A model generated the notes under the pieces. That model had not been told where the DNA came from. It ran no database searches and saw only the letters and a program-made list of their open reading frames with translations. Of a stretch of 41,142 nt of DNA, positions 2,661 through 4,867 are shown in pieces; the stretch's first letter is position 1; the number at the start of each line of letters is the position of its first letter. The stretch is from Actinomycetota bacterium. GTDB lineage: Bacteria > Actinomycetota > Thermoleophilia > Solirubrobacterales > Solirubrobacteraceae. A program made the translations under genes and the position numbers. The stretch lies in NCBI GenBank assembly GCA_005798685.1, contig SYIT01000012.1:1-41142 (forward strand), in the 5' to 3' direction.

Positions 2661-4319
2661 ATGGAACGGGAGAAACTGCTTGAAAATGCTGGCGGCCACG
2701 GCGTAAACCGCGTCGTATTCCGCGTCGTGCGCACCTTCTTCCTGCCGTTCTTTCGCACCTACTTCCGCCTCAGCACGCTCGGCCGCGAACACGTGCCAAA
2801 GAGCGGCGCGACGATCTACGCCTGCAACCACCGCTCGTTCCTTGACCCGTTTGTAATCAGCGCGCTTGGACGCAGGCCGCTCTACTTCGTCGCCAAACGC
2901 GAACTCTTCGAGAAGAACCGTCTCCAAACGTGGTTCCTCAACAGCCTTGGCGCCTTTCCGATCGATCGCGGGCATGGCGATAACGACTCGATGGAGACGG
3001 CGCTGCGAATCCTTGCGCGCGGCGACGGCGTGATGATCTTCATGGAGGGAACGCGCGTGCGGCCCGGTCCGCTGGGCCACCCGCGCAGCGGTGTCGGGCG
3101 GCTCGCGCTGCAGAGCGGAGCCCCGGTCGTGCCGGTAGCCGTCATCGGCACCGAGAACGTTCGCCGCAAGTGGCGGATCTACCCAAGGAAGATCACCGTC
3201 CGCGCCGGCGCGCCGCTGACCTTCCCTCAGGTTGACGAACCCTCGCACGAACTCGCCAAGTCGGTCGCTGACCGGGTCTGGCCCTGCGTCGAGATGCAAT
3301 GGGAGTGGCTCGGCGGCGCGGTTCCGCTGCGGCGCGTTGGAGTGGTCGGCGCCGGCGGCTGGGGGACAAGCCTCGCCGTCGCCCTCGCCCGCGCCGGAGT
3401 TGCAGTTGAGCTCGGAACCCAGGGCGCCGAGCAGGCGGCTGAGATCGCTGCCGCGCGCGTCAACGAGCGCTACTTGCCGGGCGTTGAGCTGGAGGCCGCG
3501 ATCACCGTAACCGAGGCCTCCGCAATGGATCTCGAACACGCCGACGCCGTCTTTCTCGCCGTTCCCACCCGCGAGCTGCCTGCTGTCACCGGTGCAATGG
3601 CGCCTCGCCTCGGCGCGGCAACCGGTGTCGTCGTAACGTCGAAGGGGCTGGTGCCGCCCTCGGGTGAGCTGCCAACGCCCTATTGCGCGGCACGGATTGG
3701 CGACCGCCCGGTCGCTTGCCTCGGCGGCCCCGGCCACTCCGCTGATGCTCTCGAGCACGGCGCTGCGCTCGTCGTTGCGGGCAGCGACAAGGAATTCCTC
3801 GCGCAGCTGCGCCGCGCCTTCGCCGACGCCCGCTTCGATGTGACCCTGACCGCAGACACGACCGGCGTGGAGCTGGCTGGAGTGGCGACAAACGCAGCCG
3901 TCCTTGCCGCCACGACCGCCAGCGTCGCCGGCCCAAACGCGGCAGGGGCCGCAGCAGGCAAGGTCTTCTCCGAGGTTGCCGCCTACGCGGCGGCGCTCGG
4001 CGGCGAAGCCGAAAGCTGGACCGGCCTCGCAGGGGTGGGAGACCTCGTCGCCTCGGTTGTCGCCGCAGGCGGCCGCAACCGCCGCGCCGGCGAAATGCTT
4101 GCGGCCGGCGCTTCGGCGCAGGAGATCCGGCCGGAGATCGGCCAGGTCGCCGAAGCGCTCGACTCGCTGCCGCTGCTGGCCGAGTCGCTCGCCGCCGCCG
4201 ATCTGCGCGCTCCCGCGATCGACGCTCTGGCCAAGGTGGTTGAGGGGCACATTGACGCCGCAAGCTTTGCCGAGTCCGTAATCCAACCGCGCCGCGTGGT
4301 CGGCGCACGCGTCGTCTAG
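2661..4319 (+). CDS. Fused 1-acylglycerol-3-phosphate acyltransferase / glycerol-3-phosphate dehydrogenase (PlsC-GpsA)
   Basis: A 552-aa fusion. Residues about 15-215 are a PlsC-type acyltransferase with the HX4D motif (NHRSFLDPF, His57), the substrate motif FMEGTR near residue 129 and a following GAPVVPVAV block. Residues about 225-552 are GpsA-like: Rossmann GAGGWGTSLA, NERYLPG, TSKGL, GGPGHSADAL, GLAGVGDLVASV and GRNRRAGEM. GpsA makes glycerol 3-phosphate from dihydroxyacetone phosphate, and PlsC acylates the lysophosphatidate formed later, so the fusion joins two phospholipid-backbone steps. The lysine of the usual G-A-L/V-K-N segment is Thr410 here (codon 3888-3890), so dehydrogenase activity is uncertain. 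The ATG at 2661 is preceded by AAAGGCAGG; a TTG at 2646 is possible but unsupported. Confidence 0.85.
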   Translation: MEREKLLENAGGHGVNRVVFRVVRTFFLPFFRTYFRLSTLGREHVPKSGATIYACNHRSFLDPFVISALGRRPLYFVAKRELFEKNRLQTWFLNSLGAFPIDRGHGDNDSMETALRILARGDGVMIFMEGTRVRPGPLGHPRSGVGRLALQSGAPVVPVAVIGTENVRRKWRIYPRKITVRAGAPLTFPQVDEPSHELAKSVADRVWPCVEMQWEWLGGAVPLRRVGVVGAGGWGTSLAVALARAGVAVELGTQGAEQAAEIAAARVNERYLPGVELEAAITVTEASAMDLEHADAVFLAVPTRELPAVTGAMAPRLGAATGVVVTSKGLVPPSGELPTPYCAARIGDRPVACLGGPGHSADALEHGAALVVAGSDKEFLAQLRRAFADARFDVTLTADTTGVELAGVATNAAVLAATTASVAGPNAAGAAAGKVFSEVAAYAAALGGEAESWTGLAGVGDLVASVVAAGGRNRRAGEMLAAGASAQEIRPEIGQVAEALDSLPLLAESLAAADLRAPAIDALAKVVEGHIDAASFAESVIQPRRVVGARVV

Positions 4320-4342: not shown

Positions 4343-4867
4343 GTGGACAAGGAGGAACTGGACCGGCGTTTCAGCGACTGCTACCGCGATCACCTTCGCG
4401 ACGTCTACTCCTACTCGTATTACCGCGTCGGCAACCACCACGACGCCGAGGACCTGACCGAGCAGACCTTCCTGCAGGCCTACCGTCATTTCGAACGTGC
4501 GCTGGCAGAATCGGAAGGAAGGCCGCTGCGGCCGTGGCTGATTCGCATCGCCCACAACCTCGCCGCCAATCTCTACCGCGACCGCTCGCGCAAGCCGCAG
4601 ACGAATATCGACGCGATCGCCGAGCCCGGCGCGCTGCACACGACCGAGCAGCTGGTCGAGGGGCGCGACGAACTGCGGCGGATTCTCGATTCGGTGCAGG
4701 AGCTGCCGGACGATCGCCGCGAAGCGCTGATCATGCGCTTTGCGCTTGGAATGAACAACAAGGAGATCGGCTGCGCGCTGGGTCGCAGCGAAGGGGCAAC
4801 GAAGGTGCTGCTGCACCGCGCGATCAAGCAGCTCGAAACTCTCGTTGGAGAACCGCAGGAGGCCTAG
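4343..4867 (+). CDS. ECF-type RNA polymerase sigma factor
   Basis: A 174-aa sigma-70 family protein with only regions 2 and 4, the hallmark of ECF (group 4) sigma factors. Region 2 (about residues 10-90) includes YYRVGNHHDAEDLTEQTFLQ and RPWLIRIAHNLAANLYRD. Region 4 (about residues 115-165) has LPDDRREALIMRF, then a helix-turn-helix MNNKEIGCALGRSEGATKV. The start is GTG at 4343, just after a TACGCT element and without a ribosome-binding site. It is followed by a small one-helix membrane protein whose AGGAGG ribosome-binding site overlaps the end of this gene, and then a rhomboid protease. The layout suggests signal-dependent release of the sigma factor. The regulon is unknown. Confidence 0.9.
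   Translation: MDKEELDRRFSDCYRDHLRDVYSYSYYRVGNHHDAEDLTEQTFLQAYRHFERALAESEGRPLRPWLIRIAHNLAANLYRDRSRKPQTNIDAIAEPGALHTTEQLVEGRDELRRILDSVQELPDDRREALIMRFALGMNNKEIGCALGRSEGATKVLLHRAIKQLETLVGEPQEA

What the first reader, a model, noticed from the sequence alone, without database searches (positions are those of the whole stretch)
2661..4319. PlsC-GpsA fusion whose GpsA half lacks the catalytic lysine
Two steps of glycerophospholipid backbone synthesis are joined in one chain. In the GpsA half the Rossmann loop, NERYLPG, TSKGL and GRNRR segments are kept, but the lysine of the usual G-A-L/V-K-N segment is Thr410. The TCTS-like stretch after GDL is also changed (ASVVAA). The dehydrogenase may be dead, may have moved its general base, or may have become a regulatory or ligand-binding domain for the acyltransferase.
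Basis: partly seen in the sequence, partly recalled or inferred. Interest (0 to 1): 0.55.

Follow-up and report, generated by a model that had tools for sequence, protein, structure and literature searches.

The report
Acyltransferase fused to lysine-less dehydrogenase
A bacterial enzyme that joins two steps of membrane-lipid building has, in one branch of a little-known actinobacterial genus, lost a key catalytic lysine from its dehydrogenase half; a separate intact copy is kept and the altered half stays under strong selection, which points to a half that binds or regulates rather than makes product.

Summary
The ORF at 2661-4319 joins a PlsC-type acyltransferase to a GpsA-type glycerol-3-phosphate dehydrogenase, and Thr410 sits where solved GpsA structures have the G-A-L/V-K-N lysine. 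It is no error: 9 of 17 genomes of the genus read Thr (three Thr codons), 1 Val, 5 Lys, 2 not seen. The TCTS remark is weaker: Thr became Ser, also in Lys-keeping sisters. The fusion is order-wide; 83 of 121 sampled genomes could be read at this site. All nine Thr genomes have a separate Lys-bearing GpsA. Lys is missing in 8 of 31 genomes with a separate GpsA and 1 of 52 without, needing at least four changes on the tree. The Thr-bearing half is constrained like the intact paralogue (omega 0.058 against 0.050). Human K204A data (kcat 300-fold lower, Km not raised) suggest a half that binds but turns over poorly. Best reading, unproven: a retained, poorly catalytic or non-catalytic ligand-binding module of the acyltransferase. 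Also notable: PlsY was not found in 111 of 121 genomes of the order, so the fused acyltransferase may be its missing G3P acyltransferase.

The parts
2661..4319 (+). PlsC-GpsA fusion gene, 552 aa (in-frame upstream TTG at 2646 also possible)
2781..3143 (+). acyltransferase domain (residues 41-161)
   Evidence: Pfam PF01553 E 1.7e-27
2829..2846 (+). HX4D motif, His57 to Asp62
   Evidence: sequence; His57 and Asp62 in 92 of 92 fusion ORFs
3333..4280 (+). GpsA half (about residues 225-540)
3642..3644 (+). Lys328 of SKG, counterpart of human K120, kept
   Evidence: human number by motif (inference)
3888..3890 (+). Thr410 (ACA) in place of the catalytic Lys (human K204 counterpart)
4041..4043 (+). 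Asp461 of GDL (human D260 counterpart), kept
4053..4055 (+). Ser465, Thr in most other fusions (human T264 counterpart)
4074..4079 (+). Arg472-Asn473 (human R269-N270 counterparts), kept
4143..4145 (+). Gln495 (human Q295 counterpart by motif), kept

Best explanation
The gene is a member of an order-wide PlsC-GpsA fusion family. In one branch of the window's genus the oxyanion-stabilising lysine of the GpsA half was lost (now Thr, or Val in the sister species), while a separate intact GpsA went on making glycerol-3-phosphate. The altered half was kept as a folded module that most likely still binds NAD(P)H and DHAP or G3P through Lys328, Asp461, Arg472, Asn473 and Gln495 but turns over poorly or not at all, and serves the acyltransferase as a tethered ligand-binding, regulatory or structural domain. 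Shown: the substitution, its spread, the intact paralogue, the purifying selection. Inferred: ligand binding, slow turnover, effect on the acyltransferase.
For: Thr410 in 9 of 17 genus genomes with three Thr codons. Omega of the Thr-bearing GpsA half 0.058 (six species) against 0.050 for the same species' stand-alone GpsA and 0.043 for Lys-keeping fused halves. Of 59 GpsA-half positions at least 97% conserved in 76 Lys-keeping fusions, 54 are kept in all Thr rows and 410 is the only one changed in all of them. All nine Thr genomes have a separate GpsA with Lys. Lys missing in 8 of 31 genomes with a separate GpsA, 1 of 52 without (Fisher p 0.0013, not corrected for kinship); at least four changes on the tree. 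Human GPDH K204A: about 300-fold lower kcat, Km 0.023 against 0.052 mM (PMC12874384, passages).
Against: No ligand binding or regulation is shown. The structure prediction failed (mean pLDDT 41.6). In G093 the neighbouring Asn411, also a network residue, is Lys, so that sub-site is drifting there. In other lineages the GpsA half eroded, was cut short or is absent while the acyltransferase half stayed, so the half is dispensable to the acyltransferase in those lineages. The low omega rests on near-saturated synonymous sites. K328 and D461, the stronger catalytic pair, are kept, which is also what a slow but working enzyme would show.
Confidence: 0.5

Rival explanations
1. Slow but living dehydrogenase: with K120-, D260- and R269-type residues kept, the half still makes G3P at a reduced rate, handed to the tethered acyltransferase, and that rate is what selection maintains.
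For: K204A in human GPDH costs 3.1 kcal/mol and about 300-fold in kcat from 240 per second, not all activity. Lys328, Asp461, Arg472, Asn473 and Gln495 are kept. Low omega.
Against: The genome has a Lys-bearing GpsA. Thr stands for Lys in nine species without return. In one of them Asn411 changed too.
Confidence: 0.22
2. Early neutral decay: freed by the stand-alone GpsA, the fused dehydrogenase is on its way to the erosion seen in sister lineages and has no present function.
For: Erosion or truncation in G002, G085, G006, G024, G034, G018, G037, G052 and G066; acyltransferase-only copies nested in the fused clade; loss of Lys mostly where a separate GpsA exists.
Against: Omega of the altered half equals that of the intact paralogue; 54 of 59 conserved positions untouched; Thr itself conserved over synonymous change.
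Confidence: 0.18
3. A different lysine has taken over the role (K377, conserved in the Thr group only; or Lys411 in G093).
For: K377 is Lys in 8 of 8 Thr rows that cover it and in none of the five Lys-keeping genus members.
Against: No Lys within 20 residues of 410 in the window protein; K377 aligns with a non-Lys, variable position of 3k96. G093's Lys411 is in one species.
Confidence: 0.05
4. The GpsA half has changed substrate or chemistry (another oxidoreductase).
For: Human K204A loses preference for DHAP over small aldehydes; further Thr-group changes at conserved positions 233 and 324.
Against: The phosphate-binding and main acid residues are unchanged; no independent sign of a new substrate.
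Confidence: 0.05

Closest known systems
GpsA, NAD(P)-dependent glycerol-3-phosphate dehydrogenase (chains 3k96, 1z82; human GPD1 6e8y)
   Same: Both Pfam domains, Rossmann loop, SKG Lys, GDL Asp, RNRR; E 1.3e-32 to 3k96
   Different: K of GAxKN is Thr; TCTS Thr is Ser; fused behind an acyltransferase
PlsC, 1-acyl-G3P acyltransferase (5kym)
   Same: HX4D and EGTR motifs, E 7.8e-11 to 5kym
   Different: Carries a C-terminal GpsA; below the TIGR00530 cut-off (87.2 against 102.95 bits)
PlsM (Rv2182c), mycobacterial PlsC-family enzyme that acylates G3P
   Same: PlsC-family enzyme in an actinobacterium without PlsY (PMC10593935, passages)
   Different: Not fused; mycobacteria also lack PlsX, whereas PlsX was found in 33 of 33 genomes of this order
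6iuy, a longer chain that contains a GPDH
   Same: GPDH with an extra N-terminal part (match at chain residues 317-538 of 624)
   Different: The extra part was not examined here; recalled to be a phosphatase, not an acyltransferase

Membership tests
GpsA (NAD(P)H-dependent G3P dehydrogenase) | Both Pfam domains over cut-off | tested here: met
   PF01210 85.9 bits (cut-off 23.1), PF07479 72.7 bits (cut-off 25)
GpsA (NAD(P)H-dependent G3P dehydrogenase) | Catalytic Lys of GAxKN | tested here: not met
   Thr410
GpsA (NAD(P)H-dependent G3P dehydrogenase) | Second Lys (SKG), Asp of GDL, RN of RNRR, Gln of the loop | tested here: met
   K328, D461, R472, N473, Q495
GpsA (NAD(P)H-dependent G3P dehydrogenase) | NCBIfam curated score cut-off | tested here: not met
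   best model 178.7 bits against 257
GpsA (NAD(P)H-dependent G3P dehydrogenase) | Reduces DHAP | not testable with these tools
   needs an enzyme assay
PlsC / glycerolipid acyltransferase | Acyltransferase domain with HX4D and EGTR | tested here: met
   His57, Asp62, Glu129 in 92 of 92 fusion ORFs
PlsC / glycerolipid acyltransferase | Acceptor is 1-acyl-G3P rather than G3P | not testable with these tools
   sequence does not settle it; below TIGR00530 cut-off
Pseudoenzyme (selected, catalytically impaired) | Purifying selection on the altered domain | tested here: met
   omega 0.058 against 0.050 in the intact paralogue
Pseudoenzyme (selected, catalytically impaired) | Catalysis lost | not testable with these tools
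   only inferred from human K204A

The most novel reading that the evidence does not exclude
The order (Solirubrobacterales by the titles of its nearest records) has mostly lost PlsY but kept PlsX; the fused PlsC-like enzyme has taken over acylation of G3P itself, so the fusion began as a two-step machine (DHAP to G3P to lysophosphatidic acid). In the window's branch its dehydrogenase half has been converted, chiefly by one residue, into a G3P- or NAD(P)H-sensing or substrate-holding domain that sets the rate of the first acylation.
Probability: 0.2. Interest if true: 0.72.

Novelty: new variant of a known kind. Interest (0 to 1): 0.5.

Why it matters
It is a natural test of what the second active-site lysine of G3P dehydrogenase is for: the same fused protein exists with Lys, Thr and Val in species of one genus, next to lineages where it is the only GpsA found and keeps the Lys. 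It also points to an unfilled step: an order of actinobacteria with PlsX but mostly without PlsY or PlsB, where the fused acyltransferase is a candidate for the first acylation of membrane lipid synthesis.

Tried and rejected
Sequencing or assembly error: rejected, nine genomes and three Thr codons. A single-genome oddity: rejected. TCTS change as a sign of death: rejected, Ser is shared with Lys-keeping sisters and Thr is kept in most fusions. Lysine moved nearby in sequence: no Lys within 20 residues. Structure prediction of the fusion on a five-row alignment gave mean pLDDT 41.6 and was not used; no fold search was run on it. NG86 ratios for the Lys-keeping group were high for both halves, which I put down to saturated synonymous sites; I lean on the codon-model values, themselves rough. 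For the pair G002 and G085 the eroded GpsA-derived stretch had dN/dS 0.141 and the acyltransferase half 0.219; G002 against G006 gave 0.385 and 0.125: too few changes to decide. Literature: three searches for a PlsC-GpsA or acyltransferase-GPDH fusion, one for GpsA pseudoenzymes and one for Solirubrobacterales lipid genes listed nothing on it; only listings were read for these, and the library lacks most subscription journals.

Rows dropped before counts: and later, duplicate loci L033-L036 and L140-L152, all but 30 chosen fused rows, and L153 did not enter, the extra genus genomes, so that only the 121-genome order sample was counted. The count of 77 Lys in 91 rows includes L116, a fusion split over two ORFs. 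The set of genomes with a separate GpsA used was read by hand.

Full report
What is there. The frame 2661-4316 plus stop encodes 552 aa. Pfam places an acyltransferase at 41-161 and the two GpsA domains at 226-378 and 399-535. Printed alignments to the solved GpsA chains 3k96, 1z82, 1txg and 1evy put Thr410 opposite the lysine of the L/V-K-N segment. The other Lys (328), Asp461, Arg472-Asn473 and Gln495 are kept; the Thr of the TCTS stretch is Ser465. Assignment to human residue numbers (K120, K204, D260, T264, R269, N270, Q295) rests on motif order and spacing, not on a printed alignment with the human chain.

How widespread. In the genus (17 genomes), position 410 is Thr in 9, Val in 1 (G127), Lys in 5, and not seen in 2. 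Three of the nine Thr reads are partial genes. The nine Thr codons are ACA (one), ACC (seven) and ACG (one). In the order, 121 genomes were sampled; a fused GpsA half readable at 410 was found in 83 of them, 74 with Lys and 9 without. The remaining 38 had truncated, partial, acyltransferase-only or no matching gene. Outside the order no listed match covered both halves: 116 genomes of other orders of the class and 180 of other classes. Both match lists were cut short, but the best E-values there (none better than 1e-42, against 1e-107 or better for full-length fusions) speak against one.

The intact paralogue. The window's own genome has a separate GpsA with GAAKN (L002) and a separate PlsC-like gene (L003). 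The separate GpsA genes of the order form a clade sister to the fused ones, both apart from GpsA of other orders (SH-aLRT 96 for each clade and 100 for their union), so fused and separate forms are an old pair. All nine Thr genomes carry a separate Lys-bearing copy (partial in G121). In families f3 and f4 the fusion is the only GpsA found, and Lys is present in every readable case. Overall Lys is missing in 8 of 31 genomes with a separate GpsA and 1 of 52 without; the exception, G034, is 84% complete and yielded no other GpsA. Fisher p is 0.0013, but the tree needs only four changes, so kinship inflates this. Draft genomes may also hide a separate copy.

Decay or use. Elsewhere in the order the fused GpsA half is badly eroded (G002, G085, G006, G024), shortened (G034, G018, G037, G052, G066) or absent, with acyltransferase-only copies nested among fused ones. 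The window's branch differs. Codon-model omega is 0.058 for its GpsA half (six species, 319 codons), 0.040 for its acyltransferase half, 0.043 and 0.086 for the same halves of five Lys-keeping sisters, and 0.050 for the stand-alone GpsA of the same six species (313 codons). Of 59 near-invariant positions 54 are untouched and only 410 is changed in all. Against this, 198 of 286 positions are invariant in the group anyway, so keeping the few active-site residues is expected under general constraint and is no proof of ligand binding; and Asn411 has become Lys in G093.

Mechanism. In human GPDH, K120 and K204 both stabilise the oxyanion; K204A lowers kcat about 300-fold and does not raise Km (0.023 against 0.052 mM), and K120A costs more (5.3 against 3.1 kcal/mol) (PMC12874384, passages read). 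Ala is not Thr, and the human enzyme is distant, so this is an analogy. It predicts a half that binds but turns over slowly. Hence the best explanation: a retained ligand-binding or structural module of the acyltransferase, with a slow enzyme and early decay as the serious rivals. Val in the sister G127 (tree groups it with the Thr branch) allows one loss of Lys followed by divergence, or two losses.

Wider setting. PlsY (PF02660) matched 10 of 121 genomes of the order, all at E-values between about 1e-25 and 1e-30, against 111 of 116 genomes of other orders in the class sample, most far stronger. PlsX was found in 33 of 33 genomes of the order in that class sample, PlsB-type GPAT_C in 1 of 33. 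Six gene clusters of other orders were fetched: in five, chosen because a PlsC-like hit lay near GpsA, a GRPNVGKS P-loop (recalled as typical of the GTPase Der) lies between or beside them; the sixth, L192, fetched around a PlsY-GpsA pair, showed none. In several genomes PlsY sits next to GpsA (coordinates). A deletion that removed the genes between PlsC and GpsA could have made the fusion; this is inference. A PlsC-family enzyme that acylates G3P is known in mycobacteria (PMC10593935, passages). Whether the fused enzyme fills the PlsY gap is open; several lineages that lost the GpsA half also show no PlsY (for example G030, G036, G048 and G054), so the GpsA half would not be essential to that role.

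Noticed in passing
order-wide: PlsY was not found in 111 of 121 genomes of the order although PlsX was found in 33 of 33 of those checked and PlsB-type GPAT_C in only 1 of 33: the G3P acyltransferase of this order is unassigned.
   Followed up: partly
L111, L112, L113, L110, L107, L108, L114, L115, L117: In other lineages the fused GpsA half is heavily eroded or truncated while the acyltransferase half persists.
   Followed up: partly
window 4343-4867; L201, L202: A short ORF that looks like a sigma-70-family factor follows the fusion in the window, and similar ORFs lie next to it in other families of the order: conserved gene order of unknown meaning, named by eye.
   Followed up: no
L035, L036: Two public records holding close fusions are titled Bifidobacterium breve MAGs, which does not fit their 87-88% identity to this protein; probably misnamed bins.
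   Followed up: no
L005 and L035: Thr410 is followed by Lys411 instead of the conserved Asn: a lysine one residue further on, in one species.
   Followed up: partly
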